A DNA stretch of 64,000 nucleotides, from the NCBI GenBank assembly GCA_001799575.1, contig MGTT01000021.1:1-64000 (forward strand), given 5' to 3'. A program made the translations under genes and the position numbers. The notes under the pieces were generated by a model, which saw nothing but the letters and a program-made list of their open reading frames with translations, did not search any database and was not told the origin of the DNA. The DNA comes from Elusimicrobia bacterium GWA2_56_46. GTDB taxonomy: Bacteria > Elusimicrobiota > Elusimicrobia > Elusimicrobiales > UBA9959. Positions 1 to 9,363 of this stretch are shown here, in pieces. Positions within the stretch are counted from its first letter, which is position 1. Each line of letters opens with the position of its first letter.

Positions 1-156
1 CCCGCCGGTCACACGTCACAGGTCACCAGCCAGTCACAGGTCACAAGTCACAAGTCACAAGTTGCGGAAACTGTAAGCCGGCCCGAACTGGCGCCAACGC
101 CGGTTTCCGCCCCTCAGCCCTCAGCCCCCATCCCTCATCCTTCAGCCTTAAACGAG
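1..156 (+). repeat. Left arm of a perfect 156-bp inverted repeat
   Basis: Bases 1-156 are the exact reverse complement of 419-574 (position i pairs with 575-i, checked base by base). The arm consists of low-complexity words (repeated GTCACAAGTCACAA and CCTCAGCC/CATCC units). It extends to the window edge, so its true outer limit is unknown. It encodes a Ser/Gln/Thr/Pro-rich linker in both orientations. Confidence 0.97.
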
Positions 157-534
157 GAATCGGTTAAGGCTGAGATCCTCGCCATGATCGCCGAGAAGAC
201 CGGCTACCCCACGGATATGCTGGAACTCGACCTCGACATGGAGGCCGATCTAGGTATCGACACCGTCAAACAGGCTGAGCTCTTCGCCGCCATTCGCGAG
301 CATTATGATATCCCGCGCAAGGAAAATCTCTCCCTAAAGGACTACCCTACCATCAGGCACTGCATTAAATTCGTCATGGACGAAAAAGGGGCCGCTGCGG
401 CCCCTGCCGTAAGCCGTACTCGTTTAAGGCTGAAGGATGAGGGATGGGGGCTGAGGGCTGAGGGGCGGAAACCGGCGTTGGCGCCAGTTCGGGCCGGCTT
501 ACAGTTTCCGCAACTTGTGACTTGTGACTTGTGA
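1..534 (+). CDS. Acyl-carrier-protein domain of a type I PKS/PUFA-type synthase, partial and reversed relative to its synthase
   Basis: The frame is open from base 1, so the start lies outside the window or has been lost. It reads a Ser/Thr/Gln/Pro linker (codons 1-52), then a carrier-protein domain (about bases 157-405) with the helix-II signature [11 protein letters not shown], and then an antisense reading of the linker up to a stop at 532-534. Carrier domains normally have Ser at the phosphopantetheine site (DS); here the codon at 262-264 is ACC, Thr. The same linker ends the synthase on the opposite strand. Flipping 157-418 would join this ACP in frame to that synthase. As it stands the segment is probably not a functional free-standing protein; the last ~40 residues are clearly antisense. 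Confidence 0.7.
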
Positions 535-3500
535 CCTGTGACTGGCTGGTGACCTGTGACGTGTGACCGGCGGGCGCGGCGCCCGCCATAGCCGGTTCCC
601 TTACCGGCGTATGGGGCGCCTTTCCGGCGGTTTTTTTATCCTTGATCCTCAGCGTATTTAAAGTTACTTCCAGTTCCGGATGTTCTTCTCCCGAGATCTC
701 CTTCAGCCAGTCCGTGTGCCTGGCCTGGTTGTCTATCCTGGGTTCTCCTTCTTTCCAGACCCGTTCGGTGAAAGACATCGCCATGTGCGAGCCGAAGCCG
801 GCCGCGAAACGCAGGACATACTGCAGGTCGTACTTCCCGCCCTGTGAGAGCGTGATGCCGGACAGTTCCGGATCCGGCTCTTTGTAGTTGGCTATAGGCG
901 GTATAATGCCCGTGTTCAGAGCGCGTATGGATACCACTTCTTCCAGCGAAGAGCCCATCGTGTGCCCGGTAAAACCTTTTACGTTGCTGATGATCACGTC
1001 CCGTGCATGGGTTCCGAAAGCCTTTTTCAGGGCCTTGACCTCGGCCGAGGCGCTGCCGCCCCTCGCGGGCGTATAAGTTTCGTGCGACATGAAGAAAGTC
1101 TTCGCGGCGAACCGGCTCTTGTCCAGGCCGTAGACATCCTCCACTCTCCTTATAAATCTCTCCATCACGGCCGCCACGTGGTCGGTGTCCAGTCTGCTTA
1201 CATGGTAGGCGCTGTTGGCGGATTCGGTCAGCAGCAGGCGTGCGAGCGGTTTCATGCCCCGGCCTTTGACCAGCGTCTCGTCCTCTAGTACCATGCCTAC
1301 CGCGGCGGCGCCTACTATCAGGCCGTCCCTCCTCCGGTCGAACGGCAGGGCGGCGTCCGAGACATTTTCTTTGGTCGAGGCCGTGCCGGAGGCCAGAAAT
1401 CCGGGCATGGTCCATTCCTGGACGACGCCGCTTGTGATATCGTCTGCGGCTATTATCACGACCCTCTTCGCCTTGCCCGCCCTTATCCAGCATTCGGCGG
1501 TATGCACGGCCTGGGTGGTGGAGGCGCAGGCCGCGCTTATATGCATCGCCGGGCCTTTTGCGCCGACCCACTGCGCGAACTGGCTGTCCGCTATGGGTAT
1601 CACTTTCATCAGGAAGTTCTGGCTGAAAGCATAAATGTCTTTCTCTTCCGCTGCGCGGGTCTTATCGAAGTTCTGCTCCATCCAGGCCCTGAGCGCGGCC
1701 CTGTTTTTTGGATTTTCCAGTTTGCCTATGATGTTGTCGTAGACTTCCCACATCTGGGCCGCCGTTTTGCCGCGGTATTTGTAATTGAAATAACCGGCGA
1801 CTTCGCTTATCAGGGATTCCAGGATTGGGAAAGCGGAAGCGAAGATTACGCCCGTTTCGTTCGCCAGCGCTTCCGGCAGCGCCCACTTTTCGGGCAGGTA
1901 GCCGCCGGTGGTGGTTTTTTTGTAGTAATGGATCAGCGGAATGCCCGCATCTTTGAGCGCCAGTATTCCCGCGGCCACGGCCATTTTGAAGGTAGAGTCC
2001 AGCGCTTTGGCGATGTTGTTGGGGACGCCGAATTCCTTCTCGATGTCGAACTGCCCCTTGCGCGCGGAGAGTTTTATGGCCTGATCCGCCGAATCTATTT
2101 TCGCGATGCTGTGGTTGCCGGTCGGCGATTTGATCACGCGGATGATGTTCTTGTCTATCTGCTTCTCGCGCCAGTCCATGGGGATGGGCTCGATCATGTT
2201 TTTCCCGGCCAGGATCTCGTCCAGATTATGCTCGCGGAAAAGTTTGTCCCAGGTGCCCGGGGCGCCTCCGGCTATCCCGGAGACGGCGATATTGTTGAAG
2301 TTAAACCCATAGCGGGCGGCGAACGCCGCGTTCGCAGTGGTCAGTGGTGAGTGGTCAGTGTTCAGTGCTGAGTTGGCGGATGAAACGTTTTCTCGTTCTT
2401 CCCCCGCTGTCCACTGGCCACTGTTCACCGACCACTGCAGATAGTACGGATTGAAGAACCCGCCGCCCTGCTCCGGGTGTTTCCCTTTCCAGTCCAGGTC
2501 GAAGCCCAGGGCCATGAGGTTCGCGAGCAGATCGTTGAATTCGGTTATGCCGCCGCGCTTGGGATGGTTCGAGGATAGTATGGTGATACCGGTCTTATCC
2601 TTAAAAGTGGAAGCCGCGAAAGCGCTCAGGACGCGCTTGGGGCCGCATTCTATAAAGGTGCGCACACCGTCCGCGTACATGCGTTCCAGCTGTTTTATGA
2701 ATTCCACGGGGCTTGTCATCTGTTTGAGCAGCAGGTCGTAGGTGCCCTGTTTGTCGGCCGGAAAATAATCCGCGGTTACGTTGGACAGGAGCGGAATGGT
2801 CCATGGCGAGGTCGGTATATTTTCCAGGAATTTCCTGTAAGGCCCGATGGCGGGTTCTATGATGGCGGAATGGAAAGCGTGGGAAACGGCTATCTCCTGG
2901 GCCTGCACGCCCAGCGACACGAACAGCTCAACGGCTTTTTCCACGGCGCTCCGCTCTCCGGCGATGACGGTCTGCAGCGGGCAGTTCTTGTTGGCGCAGA
3001 TCACGTAGCCGTCTATCTTTTTAAGTTCCCGATCCACTTTGTCCGCGGGCCAGCCGATGGAAGCCATTTTGCCCGGATCTTTCACTTTCACGCTGGACAT
3101 TTCCTTGGCCCGGCTGGTGACGGCGCGCAGGCCGTTCTCAAGCGTGAACACTCCGGCCGCCGCCGCGGCGGCGTATTCGCCCAGGCTGTGGCCGATGACC
3201 ATGTCAGGCTTTATGCCGAATGAGGTCAGCAGGCGGAACATGGCCATGTCGGCCGTCATCATGGCCGGCTGGGTCATCTGGGTCTGCTTGATGGCGTTTT
3301 CCCGTTTCTCAAGTTCCTCTTTGGATTCGCCGGGTTTGGACCAGAGCGTATCGGTGAGGTTAACGCCGATCATCTTTTCAAGTATGCGGTCGGCTTCATC
3401 AAAAGTGGCCTGCACCACCTCGTATTTGGCGGCCAGGTCGCGCATCATGTCCACGTACTGCGAGCCCTGCCCGGGAAACAGGAAGCCGATCTTCGCGTCG

Positions 3501-5320
3501 TGCTTCTTGCGCCTGAAGGTGTAGACGCCCTTGAGCCTGAAGTTCAGCGGAGGGTTGTCCCAGGTCTCCGGTTTTGCGTTGGCGTTCAGAAATTCTATCT
3601 TCTCCCGCAGGTCGGCCGGGGTTTTGGCGACTATGGAGACGCCCCATCCCTGCTGCGGCTTTGCGTTGGCAGATTGGGCGAAAAGAGCTATGGGGTAAGT
3701 CTCAGGCCAGCGGCTGAAAGTGGAGGCGGAGAGAGCTTTCGCTTCGGCCATGACGGCCTGGGGCGTGGCCGCGGTGAAAGTAATCGCCTCGCCCTGGAGG
3801 CCGGAGAACGGCGTCTTGGGGTTTTCCACAACTGAGGCGTGGCTAGTGGCTTGCGACTCGTGGCTCGTAACCGGCAACTGCCGGCTTCCGGCTTCTGACT
3901 TCCGGCTTCTGACTTCTGCCGGCTGCCCCGCGTACTCTTCCATGGTCACGTGGAAGTTGGTGCCTCCGAAACCGAAAGAAGACACATTGGCCCTTCTTAT
4001 GCCGTCGGTTTTCTCCCAGGGCTCGGCCTTGGTTATCACCCTGAACAGGTTCAGATCTATGCCGGGATTGGGTTTGGCATAATTGATGGAGGTAGGAAGG
4101 ATCTTATGGTGCAGGGCTAAAGCCGTTTTCACCAGGCTGACGGCGCCGGCCGCCGCCTTGGCGTGGCCTATCTGGGATTTGACCGAGGTGAGCCCCAGTT
4201 TTTTGCCCGGTTTTATGTGGGATCCGAAGATGTCCTTTAGCGCTTCCACTTCCGCGGCGTCGCCCACCCTGGTGGCCGTGCCGTGGGCTTCCACGAAATC
4301 CACTTCACCGGGGCCGTAATCCACCTGTGCGAAAGCGTTTTCGATGGCCATTTTCTGGCCCTTGGGGTTGGGGGCCGTGATGCCCTTTCCTTTTCCATCC
4401 GAAGAGGCGCCCACGGAATTTATCAGGGCGTAGATCTTGTCGCCGTCCCTCACCGCGTCGGAATACCTTTTCAGGATGTAGACCGCCACGGCTTCGGCCA
4501 TGACGAAACCGTTGGCCCGCTCGTCAAAGGAGTAGGAGCCGTCCGCGGACAGCGCGCCTATCTTGCAGAACTTGACGAAAGCGGGGGCGGACATCATCTC
4601 GTCCGCGCCGCCTGTAACCGCCATGTCGAACTTGCCCGAACGCAGGCCCATCACGGCGTAGTCCAGGGCAGCCAGGGAGGAGGCGCAGGCGGCGTCCATG
4701 GTCATATTGGGGCCGTTGAGATTGAAGACGTTGGCTATCCTGCCGGCGGTGACGTTCGAAAGCTCTCCGGGCATGGTGTCTTCGGTGATCTTAATTATGT
4801 TTTGGTCTATCTGGCCCTCGTATTCCTCCAGGAGGGCTTTCTGCTGGGAGGCCGTGAGTCCGGCGTAGGTGCCGGTTTTTTTAAGGAGATCTTCATTAAA
4901 GAACTTATAAACGCGAAAGTCGGTAAGCTCCTTGCGCATGGCGCCCATGGCGTTGCCTATAACGGCCGCGGTCATCCTGGGATCGAATGGTTTCTTGTCA
5001 TAGCCGGAATCTTCAAACGCCATGCGTACGGCCTCTATGGTCATCTGCTGGAGGCGCGAGATCTGCGCGGCAGTCTGGGGCGGGATCTTGTACCGTATCG
5101 GGTCGAACGTGAAGTCCTTGATGAAGCCGCCTATCTTGGAATAGGTCTTGTCGGCGGCCTTGTGGTCTTCGGAGTAGTAGAGCCGCCAGTCCCAGCGGTC
5201 TTTGGGAACCTCGCTGACGCAGTTCTTTCCGGAAGTGATATTCTTCCAAAATTGGTCTTTATTGGGGGCGTCCGGGGCTATTATTCCCAGGCCGACTATC
5301 GCTATTTTCTCAGAGTTCAT
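374..5320 (-). CDS. Type I polyketide/PUFA-synthase-like protein, KS-AT-KS, truncated before its ACP
   Basis: Iterative acyl-chain synthase. Domains in order: ketosynthase 1 (about residues 1-465; Cys212 in DACASSLAA, His346 in HGTAT, His386 in QIGHAKAA), acyltransferase (about 605-920; GQGSQ and Ser712 in GHSLGEY), and a second ketosynthase (about 1010-1540; Cys1265 in AACASTTQA, the HGT motif replaced by SHETYTPARGG, then GFTGHTMGS). The domains are separated by low-complexity linkers. The ATG has GAGG 10 bases upstream. The C-terminus runs through the inverted-repeat linker and then into antisense ACP sequence before a stop, so the carrier domain is missing from the reading frame. KS-AT plus ACP is the layout of PfaA/HglE-type secondary-lipid synthases; the product is unknown. 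No KR or DH is visible in the window. Confidence 0.85.
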   Translation of the reverse strand: MNSEKIAIVGLGIIAPDAPNKDQFWKNITSGKNCVSEVPKDRWDWRLYYSEDHKAADKTYSKIGGFIKDFTFDPIRYKIPPQTAAQISRLQQMTIEAVRMAFEDSGYDKKPFDPRMTAAVIGNAMGAMRKELTDFRVYKFFNEDLLKKTGTYAGLTASQQKALLEEYEGQIDQNIIKITEDTMPGELSNVTAGRIANVFNLNGPNMTMDAACASSLAALDYAVMGLRSGKFDMAVTGGADEMMSAPAFVKFCKIGALSADGSYSFDERANGFVMAEAVAVYILKRYSDAVRDGDKIYALINSVGASSDGKGKGITAPNPKGQKMAIENAFAQVDYGPGEVDFVEAHGTATRVGDAAEVEALKDIFGSHIKPGKKLGLTSVKSQIGHAKAAAGAVSLVKTALALHHKILPTSINYAKPNPGIDLNLFRVITKAEPWEKTDGIRRANVSSFGFGGTNFHVTMEEYAGQPAEVRSRKSEAGSRQLPVTSHESQATSHASVVENPKTPFSGLQGEAITFTAATPQAVMAEAKALSASTFSRWPETYPIALFAQSANAKPQQGWGVSIVAKTPADLREKIEFLNANAKPETWDNPPLNFRLKGVYTFRRKKHDAKIGFLFPGQGSQYVDMMRDLAAKYEVVQATFDEADRILEKMIGVNLTDTLWSKPGESKEELEKRENAIKQTQMTQPAMMTADMAMFRLLTSFGIKPDMVIGHSLGEYAAAAAAGVFTLENGLRAVTSRAKEMSSVKVKDPGKMASIGWPADKVDRELKKIDGYVICANKNCPLQTVIAGERSAVEKAVELFVSLGVQAQEIAVSHAFHSAIIEPAIGPYRKFLENIPTSPWTIPLLSNVTADYFPADKQGTYDLLLKQMTSPVEFIKQLERMYADGVRTFIECGPKRVLSAFAASTFKDKTGITILSSNHPKRGGITEFNDLLANLMALGFDLDWKGKHPEQGGGFFNPYYLQWSVNSGQWTAGEERENVSSANSALNTDHSPLTTANAAFAARYGFNFNNIAVSGIAGGAPGTWDKLFREHNLDEILAGKNMIEPIPMDWREKQIDKNIIRVIKSPTGNHSIAKIDSADQAIKLSARKGQFDIEKEFGVPNNIAKALDSTFKMAVAAGILALKDAGIPLIHYYKKTTTGGYLPEKWALPEALANETGVIFASAFPILESLISEVAGYFNYKYRGKTAAQMWEVYDNIIGKLENPKNRAALRAWMEQNFDKTRAAEEKDIYAFSQNFLMKVIPIADSQFAQWVGAKGPAMHISAACASTTQAVHTAECWIRAGKAKRVVIIAADDITSGVVQEWTMPGFLASGTASTKENVSDAALPFDRRRDGLIVGAAAVGMVLEDETLVKGRGMKPLARLLLTESANSAYHVSRLDTDHVAAVMERFIRRVEDVYGLDKSRFAAKTFFMSHETYTPARGGSASAEVKALKKAFGTHARDVIISNVKGFTGHTMGSSLEEVVSIRALNTGIIPPIANYKEPDPELSGITLSQGGKYDLQYVLRFAAGFGSHMAMSFTERVWKEGEPRIDNQARHTDWLKEISGEEHPELEVTLNTLRIKDKKTAGKAPHTPVREPAMAGAAPAGHTSQVTSQSQVTSHKSQVAETVSRPELAPTPVSAPQPSAPIPHPSALNEYGLRQGPQRPLFRP
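419..574 (-). repeat. Right arm of the 156-bp inverted repeat
   Basis: This is the exact reverse complement of 1-156, with a 262-bp spacer (157-418) carrying the ACP domain. On the minus strand it encodes the last in-frame linker of the KS-AT-KS synthase. The next base pair outward (157/418) no longer matches. Confidence 0.97.
2337..2440. repeat. Word-like low-complexity repeat in a PKS linker
   Basis: Permuted copies of GTGGTCAGTG/TTCAGTGCTGAG and, in opposite sense, CCACTGTTCACC/CCACTGGCC words. It lies in frame in the linker between the AT and the second KS, translated as a Ser/Asn/Thr/Gln-rich stretch. Confidence 0.75.
3836..3935. repeat. Word-like low-complexity repeat in the KS1-AT linker
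   Basis: Tandem imperfect words GGCTTCTGACTTCC, CGTGGCTCGTAAC and CGGCTTCC. They are in frame in the linker between KS1 and AT of the synthase and encode a Ser/Arg/His-rich stretch unlike the surrounding domains. Confidence 0.75.
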
Positions 5321-6779: not shown

Positions 6780-7802
6780 ATGGATTACGCTAAATTGTGG
6801 TTTGCCCTTTGGGGAATCTTGTGGGCGGTATATTTCGCGCTGGACGGCTTTGACCTTGGGGTGGGGATGGTTTGGCGCGCCGTGGCGCGTACCGAAGAAG
6901 AAAAAAGCGGCGCGGCCGCCTCCATTTTCCCTTTCTGGGACGGCAACGAGGTCTGGCTGGTGGCCGCGGGCGGCATCACTTTCGCCGCGTTCCCCGGCGC
7001 CTACGCGGCCATGTTCAGTTGGTTTTATTCCGCCATGTTCCTGGCTCTTTTCGGCCTCATTCTTCGCGGGGTCTCGCTTGAATTTATGCGTAAGGCGCCC
7101 GGCACCCGTCTCAAAGCCCTCCTGGAGGCCGGTTTTACGGCCGGCAGTTTTCTGCCCGCCCTTGTCTTCGGTATCGCGTTCGGCAATATTTTCAGAGGGC
7201 TGCCGTCGGGGCCCTCCGGGTATGAGGGAAATTTACCGGGTCTTATAAATTCCTACAGTCTGTTGTTCGCGGCCCTGTTTGCCTCGCTGTTCGCGTTCCA
7301 CGGATCTCTTTGGCTCTCTTTCAAAACCAGCGGCCCCCCCTCCGCGCGCGCATCGGCGCTCGCGAAAAAACTTTGGAACGCGGCGGCTGTTCTGGTCGCG
7401 GCGGTTTTTATATACAGCGCTTTTGACACGGCCCTTTATAATAATTATTTTAACAGGAAACACCTGTTTGTGATACCGTTGCTCTGCGTCATTTCTCTGG
7501 CCGCCGCGCGGTTCCTGGCGGCCAGGCGTCCGGCCGCGGCTTTTGCCTGTTCCATGGCCGCCATCGCGTCGCTTCTGGTTTCCGGTTTTATCGGTATTTA
7601 TCCCGAGCTCCTGCCGTCGCGGCTGGACCCGGTTTACAGCGTGACTATTTTTAATTCCGCTTCCGGCCCCTATACCCTGAAGATCATGGCCCGGGCGGCG
7701 GCGTTATTCCTCCCCCTTATCATGGCCTACCAGTTCTGGGTCTACCGCCTTTTCCACTCCCCCCTGAACCCGGAAGAACTAAAAAAAAGCGGCATCTATT
7801 AA
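6780..7802 (+). CDS. cydB: Cytochrome bd ubiquinol oxidase subunit II
   Basis: Second core subunit of the bd oxidase. The N-terminus WFALWGILWAVYFALDGFDL is diagnostic for CydB, and the 340-aa protein has about eight to nine hydrophobic segments, the usual size. The ATG at 6780 follows the cydA stop by 4 bases, so the two are translated as a coupled pair. No CydX-like small subunit is visible downstream; the transcript appears to end at the terminator just after the stop. With the FNR-like regulator elsewhere in the window, the oxidase suggests microaerobic respiration or oxygen scavenging. Confidence 0.95.
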   Translation: MDYAKLWFALWGILWAVYFALDGFDLGVGMVWRAVARTEEEKSGAAASIFPFWDGNEVWLVAAGGITFAAFPGAYAAMFSWFYSAMFLALFGLILRGVSLEFMRKAPGTRLKALLEAGFTAGSFLPALVFGIAFGNIFRGLPSGPSGYEGNLPGLINSYSLLFAALFASLFAFHGSLWLSFKTSGPPSARASALAKKLWNAAAVLVAAVFIYSAFDTALYNNYFNRKHLFVIPLLCVISLAAARFLAARRPAAAFACSMAAIASLLVSGFIGIYPELLPSRLDPVYSVTIFNSASGPYTLKIMARAAALFLPLIMAYQFWVYRLFHSPLNPEELKKSGIY

Positions 7803-7878: not shown

Positions 7879-8718
7879 ATGAAAATCAAGTTCTGGGGGG
7901 CCAGGGGGAGTATTCCTGTTTCGGGCAGGCAATATTTGAAGTACGGCGGCAGCACCACCTGCGTGGAGGTGCGCTCCAAAAAGGACGATCTCGTCATCGT
8001 GGATGCGGGCACGGGGATAAGGGCCCTGGGCAAAGAGCTTATCAAGAACCATCACAACGATTTCACGATGCTCTTCACGCATTCCCACTGGGATCACGTT
8101 ATCGGTTTCCCTTTCTTCGCCCCCATTTACAACAGTAGAACCAGGATCCGTATGCTGGGCTGCTCTTTTTCTTCCGACCCCGTCCGCGAGATAGTCGCCA
8201 AGACCATGCAGCCTCCCGGTTTTCCGGTGAAGTTCTCCGAGATCGCGGCCAGGTTCGAATTCAGCTCGGTCTGCGCCACCGGCTGGGAGATCGGCCCCAT
8301 GACCATCGTGCCTATCGAACTGAGCCACCCCAACTGCGGTCTGGGTTTCAAGTTCCAGGAAAAAGGGCGGACTTTCGTCTTTCTCACCGACAATGAACTG
8401 GATTTCAGGCATCCCGGCGGCAGAACCTTTGACGAGTACCTGGCCTTTTCCCGCGGGGCCGATCTGCTGGTGCACGACGCGGATTATACCGTGGAGGAAT
8501 ACTCCAGGCGTCTGGCCTGGGGCCACTCCACCTGGGAGCAGGCCCTTGACCTGGCGCTGAAAGCCGGGGTGCGCGGGTTCGGGCTGTTCCATCACAACCA
8601 GGATCGGAGCGACGCGGAAGTGGATAAACTGCTGGCCTTGTGCCGCAGGAAGATCAAAGCGGCCGGTTCCAGAATGACGTGTTTCGCTGTCAAAGAGGGC
8701 CAGCGCGTGGAAATTTAG
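7879..8718 (+). CDS. MBL-fold metal-dependent hydrolase
   Basis: Metallo-beta-lactamase-fold protein of 279 aa. The metal-binding motif THSHWDH is at residues 67-73 and further conserved positions are seen in FLTDNE and VHDADYT. The N-terminus KIKFWGARGSIPVSG followed by YGGSTTCVEV is typical of the RNase Z/PhnP/cyclic-nucleotide-phosphodiesterase branch, so a phosphodiester substrate is likely, but it cannot be named. A strong Shine-Dalgarno (GGAGGG) sits 5 bases before the ATG. It appears to be its own unit after the cydAB terminator. Confidence 0.85.
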   Translation: MKIKFWGARGSIPVSGRQYLKYGGSTTCVEVRSKKDDLVIVDAGTGIRALGKELIKNHHNDFTMLFTHSHWDHVIGFPFFAPIYNSRTRIRMLGCSFSSDPVREIVAKTMQPPGFPVKFSEIAARFEFSSVCATGWEIGPMTIVPIELSHPNCGLGFKFQEKGRTFVFLTDNELDFRHPGGRTFDEYLAFSRGADLLVHDADYTVEEYSRRLAWGHSTWEQALDLALKAGVRGFGLFHHNQDRSDAEVDKLLALCRRKIKAAGSRMTCFAVKEGQRVEI

Positions 8719-8795
8719 GCGGCGCAACTATTTATTGAAAAGGTTCGCGTAAACTAATAGAATAGTTCCACACTTGGGTACAGAGGCTTTATAAT

Positions 8796-9282: not shown

Positions 9283-9305
9283 CCGAATTCCTTAGTGGAA
9301 TTCGG
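9283..9305 (+). other. Perfect 9-bp hairpin between genes
   Basis: CCGAATTCC, loop TTAGT, GGAATTCGG, starting right after the stop at 9281. No T-run follows, so it is not a classical terminator; it may protect the 3' end of the transcript. It leads into GGGATGA/AGATGAGGG word repeats at 9306-9334. Confidence 0.6.
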
Positions 9306-9363
9306 AGGGATGAGGGATGAAAGATGAGGGATGAAAAGTAGTTTTTGTTTACATTGCCTTTCA

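What the first reader, a model, noticed from the sequence alone, without database searches (positions are those of the whole stretch)
1..574. ACP cassette in the wrong orientation between perfect 156-bp inverted repeats at the end of a PKS
The synthase's last linker runs into a 156-bp perfect inverted repeat. Between the arms lies a carrier-protein domain on the other strand. Flipping 157-418 would extend the synthase in frame (linker, then ESVKAEIL and the ACP). This could be a phase-variable on/off switch for a lipid/polyketide synthase, or a fold-back assembly artefact, since the arm reaches the window edge. Tandem ACPs with repetitive linkers favour both. No recombinase gene is adjacent in the window.
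Basis: partly seen in the sequence, partly recalled or inferred. Interest (0 to 1): 0.65.

Follow-up and report, generated by a model that had tools for sequence, protein, structure and literature searches.

The report
Misjoined contig end, not a switch
The apparent flipped carrier-protein cassette is most likely a short-read assembly error at the end of a contig: the other half of the same lipid synthase gene sits on another contig, and neither orientation of the supposed switch could encode a complete enzyme.

Summary
The sequence feature is there: a perfect 156-bp inverted repeat (1-156 / 419-574) around a 262-bp acyl-carrier-protein (ACP) segment on the strand opposite the synthase. Base 1 is the end of contig C21 of a 30-contig Elusimicrobiota genome. 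The missing half of the synthase (ACP-ACP-KR-DH, 1,097 aa, open at its 5' end) begins at the end of contig C23. Relatives encode KS-AT-KS-ACPs-KR-DH as one frame of about 2,700-3,200 aa. None of 42 relative loci has this repeat, and in 10 of 19 genomes the gene is split between contigs at the ACP array. A switch fails on its own terms: as deposited the frame stops 14 codons past the arm; flipped, it gains the ACP but stops inside the other arm, whose complement has stops in all three frames. Best explanation: two overlapping pieces, [synthase-linker] and [linker-ACP1], were joined tail-to-tail instead of overlapped. The enzyme is a known kind, a PfaA-like "Type R" secondary lipid synthase. Two side observations look more interesting: all 64 ACP copies sampled in these synthases have Thr at the phosphopantetheine-Ser position, and the genome is rich in unrelated 7-bp tandem arrays.

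The parts
1..156 (.). Left arm: second, inverted copy of the KS2-ACP1 linker; base 1 is the end of contig C21
   Evidence: 100% complementary to 419-574
157..418 (+). ACP1 segment (87 aa), on the strand opposite the synthase in this assembly; expected in the synthase's own direction after the linker
   Evidence: PF00550; 95% identical to C23:403-652, identity ending exactly at 418
419..574 (-). Right arm: the genuine linker between the second KS-like domain and ACP1, contiguous with the synthase
   Evidence: relatives have a linker here followed by a forward ACP
374..5320 (-). N-terminal part of a PfaA-like synthase: KS-AT-second KS-like domain; frame broken at the misjoin (1,648 aa)
142..173 (+). 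Hairpin across the linker/ACP1 boundary; the arm boundary 156/157 lies in its loop
   Evidence: z = -5.8 against shuffles
569..587 (-). GC-rich hairpin at the outer edge of the right arm (mirror of the contig end)
   Evidence: 8-bp stem, but not stronger than shuffled sequence (z = -0.8)

Best explanation
The inverted repeat is an assembly misjoin at a contig end, not a feature of the chromosome. The real gene runs KS-AT-KS2-linker-ACP1-ACP2-ACP3(or more)-KR-DH in one frame. Near-identical ACPs and repetitive linkers broke the short-read assembly. Piece A ([synthase-linker], now 419 onward) and piece B ([linker-ACP1], now 1-418) overlap by the 156-bp linker and should have been merged through it. 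Instead B was abutted in the wrong orientation, ACP end to linker end, so the shared linker appears twice as a perfect inverted repeat. Shown: contig end, location of the other half of the gene, continuity in relatives, stops in both orientations. Inferred: the exact step that made the misjoin (scaffolding or gap closing, or a chimeric fold-back read).
For: Base 1 is the end of contig C21. ACP-ACP-KR-DH with a 5'-open frame starts contig C23. A trial join gives one open frame of 2,845 aa, within the range of intact relatives, 2,684-3,211 aa. All 12 relatives read at this boundary go from linker to a forward ACP. No inverted repeat at the array in 42 relative loci, while contigs end or N gaps sit at exact direct repeats of 100-141 nt there. 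Gene split between contigs at the array in 10 of 19 genomes, own included. ACP identity with C23 ends exactly at 418, and the join has no microhomology. Flip test and three-frame stops exclude a complete product in either orientation.
Against: No reads were available, so the misjoin is not seen directly. The arm (156 nt) is longer than the roughly 80-96 nt by which many other contig ends of this genome run into shared repeats. No other contig end of the genome shows such a fold-back, so it is not a general habit of this assembly.
Confidence: 0.95

Rival explanations
1. Phase-variable switch: the ACP segment inverts between the 156-bp arms and turns the synthase on and off.
For: Perfect arms, and flipping does append the ACP in frame.
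Against: Flipped, the frame still stops in the other arm, and that arm has stops in all three frames, so ACP2, ACP3, KR and DH are never reached. No recombinase hit on C21 or C23. Repeat absent from relatives. Arm ends at the contig end.
Confidence: 0.01
2. Real but non-switching inverted duplication of the linker, for instance by template switching at the hairpins, that breaks the gene in this strain or in part of the population.
For: A strong hairpin lies at the inner breakpoint, and the array is repetitive.
Against: Simple snap-back at that hairpin would not include the ACP. The intact C-terminal half with open frame is kept on C23. The arm runs out exactly at a contig end.
Confidence: 0.03
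3. Chimeric library molecule: a fold-back made during amplification or library preparation, rather than an assembler's joining step, put the inverted linker into the contig. Still an artefact.
For: A direct junction without N is what one chimeric read would give.
Against: A rare chimera would have to outvote true reads, and no other of the 60 contig ends shows a comparable fold-back. Sub-case of the artefact verdict, so its confidence overlaps that of the best explanation.
Confidence: 0.15

Closest known systems
Type R secondary lipid synthase (pfaA homologue KS-MAT-CLF-ACP(3-6)-KR plus downstream PPTase; Shulse and Allen 2011, PMC3098273)
   Same: Domain order, tandem ACPs, downstream PPTase, and occurrence in Elusimicrobia (Elusimicrobium minutum)
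   Different: A dehydratase-like domain follows the KR here, which the published formula does not list; the gene is split by the assembly
PfaA of PUFA synthases (TIGR02813)
   Same: KS, AT, tandem ACPs and KR align along the model
   Different: Second KS-like domain before the ACPs; intact relatives score 935-945 bits against a cut-off of 1010
Phase-variable invertible elements (site-specific inversion between inverted repeats)
   Same: A coding segment between inverted repeats
   Different: No recombinase nearby, no productive orientation, not conserved, and lies at a contig end
Repeat-induced short-read misassembly at contig ends
   Same: Contig end, repetitive array, second half of the gene on another contig, same breakpoint in relatives
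   Different: The wrong join is inverted here; relatives show direct-repeat ends or N gaps instead

Membership tests
Phase-variable invertible element | One orientation gives a complete, functional product | tested here: not met
   Both orientations stop early, 1,648 and 1,759 aa; arm complement has stops in all frames
Phase-variable invertible element | Recombinase gene near the segment | tested here: not met
   PF00589 hits on C4, C9, C28 and PF00239 hits on C26, C28 only; an unrelated or distant recombinase is not excluded
Phase-variable invertible element | Both orientations present in the population | not testable with these tools
   No reads available
Assembly misjoin | Located at a contig end in a repetitive region | tested here: met
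Assembly misjoin | True continuation found elsewhere in the same assembly | tested here: met
   C23 starts with ACP-ACP-KR-DH, frame open at the contig end
Assembly misjoin | No reads support the junction | not testable with these tools
   No reads available
Type R secondary lipid synthase | KS-MAT-CLF-ACP(3-6)-KR | tested here: met
   KS-AT-second KS-like domain on C21 and ACP-ACP-KR on C23, plus ACP1: at least 3 ACPs. That the second KS-like domain acts as CLF was not tested
Type R secondary lipid synthase | Downstream PPTase gene | tested here: met
   L008 4641-5441: PF01648 and PF17837 above cut-off
Type R secondary lipid synthase | Groups with Type R in the KS tree | not tested
   No tree was built
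PfaA equivalog (TIGR02813) | Score above the curated cut-off of 1010 bits | tested here: not met
   Intact relatives L054 935 bits and L018 945 bits

The most novel reading that the evidence does not exclude
The inverted duplication is real in part of the population: hairpin-primed template switching in the ACP array repeatedly makes inverted, truncated synthase alleles, so the lipid synthase is heritably switched off in some cells.
Probability: 0.03. Interest if true: 0.5.

Novelty: not a real feature. Interest (0 to 1): 0.08.

Why it matters
It prevents a false claim of a phase-variable lipid synthase. It also shows that tandem ACP arrays split PfaA-like synthase genes in many Elusimicrobiota assemblies, so synthase counts and ACP numbers taken from such assemblies need checking.

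Tried and rejected
Phase switch: rejected by the flip test and the three-frame stops. Inversion between the flanking GC hairpins: would give synthase-(ACP reversed)-(linker reversed), not the deposited order. Snap-back at the linker/ACP hairpin: would not include the ACP. Recombinase near the array: none found. Fold-back repeats as a general habit of this assembly: of 60 contig ends only C21's left end shows one; C8's terminal repeat is shared with C4, and the 122-bp repeat on C26 belongs to a serine-recombinase element. The first inverted-repeat scan counted runs of N as palindromes and was repeated without them. One search failed on a wrong reading frame and was repeated. Literature searches on this artefact type, on Thr-type ACPs and on Elusimicrobia repeats gave nothing directly relevant. 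PADLOC gave no hit. Plasmid records gave only distant ACPs.

Full report
WHAT IS THERE. The window begins with a perfect 156-bp inverted repeat, 1-156 and 419-574, with 262 bp between the arms. It is the only perfect inverted repeat of 30 nt or more in the window, and chance is excluded (about 1e-85). The segment between the arms encodes an acyl carrier protein domain on the + strand (PF00550), while the synthase runs on the - strand from 5320.

WHERE IT IS. The window is bases 1-64000 of contig C21 (77,507 bp) of a 2.66-Mb, 30-contig genome that is 98.8% complete. Base 1 is therefore a contig end. The closest named records are Elusimicrobia metagenome-assembled genomes.

THE REST OF THE GENE IS ON ANOTHER CONTIG. 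The ACP segment matches two other places in the genome, both at the start of contig C23: 403-652 (95%) and 59-277 (91%). C23 opens in mid-linker and encodes ACP-ACP-KR-DH in one 1,097-aa frame that is open at the contig end, followed by a phosphopantetheinyl transferase and a carboxyltransferase gene. The first 70 nt of C23 recur exactly at 733-802 of the same contig, another sign of a repeat-driven break. A trial join of [synthase-linker] + [157-418] + the 80-nt linker seen after the last ACP of C23 + C23 gives one open frame of 2,845 aa. The 80-nt filler is an assumption; the true gap could hold more ACPs.

RELATIVES. In the 12 relative loci in which the boundary after the second KS-like domain was read, the linker leads into a forward ACP, including the 87%-identical congener G001. 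Intact genes are single frames of 2,684-3,211 aa with 2-5 recognised ACPs; a frame open at its 5' end (L027/L068) shows one. Among 42 relative loci (a few are the same genome fetched twice) none has an inverted repeat at the array; the only perfect hit of 25 nt or more is a short self-palindrome in L065, away from it. In 10 of 19 genomes where both halves were located, own genome included, they are on different contigs. With about 110 contigs per 2.4 Mb the rough expectation is 5% per genome. One more, G015, is bridged by an N gap. Several relatives' contigs end, or meet an N gap, at exact direct repeats of 100, 127 or 141 nt in the array, as expected of k-mer assemblers. G013 shows a different misassembly at the same place: its frame breaks after a collapsed ACP.

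THE SWITCH FAILS ITS OWN TEST. As deposited, the synthase frame runs 14 codons past the arm and stops (1,648 aa). With 157-418 flipped it reads through the ACP, enters the other arm and stops at 1,759 aa. The complement of the linker has stops in all three frames. Neither orientation can reach the second ACP, the KR or the DH. Pfam integrase (PF00589) and resolvase (PF00239) hits in the genome lie on C4, C9, C26 and C28, none on C21 or C23.

HOW THE ARTEFACT PROBABLY AROSE. Many contig ends in this genome stop about 80-96 nt into sequence shared with other ends, which fits a short-read assembly. The simplest account is two pieces that overlap by the linker: A = synthase-linker, ending at 419, and B = linker-ACP1, bases 1-418. 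B ends exactly where its identity with the C23 ACP ends, at 418. The pieces were abutted ACP-end to linker-end with no microhomology instead of merged through the shared 156 bp. The arm boundary 156/157 falls in the loop of a strong hairpin (z = -5.8), and the outer arm edge falls in a GC hairpin that is no stronger than shuffles. These may be why the pieces broke there. This step is inference; a chimeric fold-back molecule would leave the same trace.

WHAT THE GENE IS. The enzyme matches the published Type R secondary lipid synthase, KS-MAT-CLF-ACP(3-6)-KR with a downstream PPTase, which was listed for Elusimicrobium minutum (PMC3098273). PfaA (TIGR02813) is the best or second-best NCBIfam family for each sequence scanned, but intact relatives score just under its cut-off. 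ACP number in PfaA varies between 2 and 9 (PMC3585217).

SIDE OBSERVATIONS. (a) All 64 ACP copies caught by a motif that allowed any residue at the attachment position, in 24 Elusimicrobiota loci, read [11 protein letters not shown], with Thr where solved ACPs and related synthases of Streptomyces and Methylosinus have Ser. (b) Period-7 tandem arrays stand out in this genome: in 1.10 Mb, TRF finds 50 of period 7 against 2 of period 8 and none of periods 4-6, with about 25 different units. A lag-match scan agrees (27 at lag 7 against 0-3 at lags 4-6 and 8-13), and a Markov-shuffled control has none. Of 84 merged period-7/14/21 arrays 49 are intergenic although 88% of this DNA is in frames of at least 120 codons. 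CCCTCAT triplets are patchy among relatives (G000, G005, G007, G008, G016); in G005 they lie inside the same synthase gene, beside the KR. A heptamer repeat of another sequence, TAACTGA, is known from Beggiatoaceae (PMC4679880).

VERDICT. The decisive test is read mapping, which could not be run here.

Noticed in passing
window 157-418 (ACP motif [11 protein letters not shown]); L008-L030, L054-L058: All 64 ACP copies matched in 24 Elusimicrobiota loci have Thr where the phosphopantetheine-bearing Ser normally is; related synthases of Streptomyces and Methylosinus have Ser. Whether Thr is modified is unknown here.
   Followed up: partly
window 8-62, 111-147, 2335-2367, 2407-2437, 3877-3918, 9305-9336; L072 5498-5579; many others: Period-7 tandem arrays of about 25 different units are strongly enriched in this genome, mostly intergenic but also in the linkers of this synthase; patchy among relatives.
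   Followed up: partly
L059 (G013:C7) 7221-7690: A second apparent misassembly at the same ACP array in a relative: ACP1 runs out of frame into a linker, and the contig ends with a 141-nt exact direct repeat of that ACP.
   Followed up: partly
L096 (G000:C26) 1702-1823 and 3401-3522: A 122-bp perfect inverted repeat around a large serine recombinase gene (PF00239) whose 3' end forms one arm, next to a tRNA-Ser at 3517-3603; looks like an integrated element.
   Followed up: partly
L078 (G000:C8) 2-97 and 8631-8726: 8.7-kb contig with 96-nt inverted copies of one sequence at its two ends, shared with an end of C4: probably a dispersed repeat at which contigs break.
   Followed up: partly
G030:C5 around 111999-112481: A relative has a synthase-like match inside an open frame of 24,284 codons, a giant gene.
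   Followed up: no
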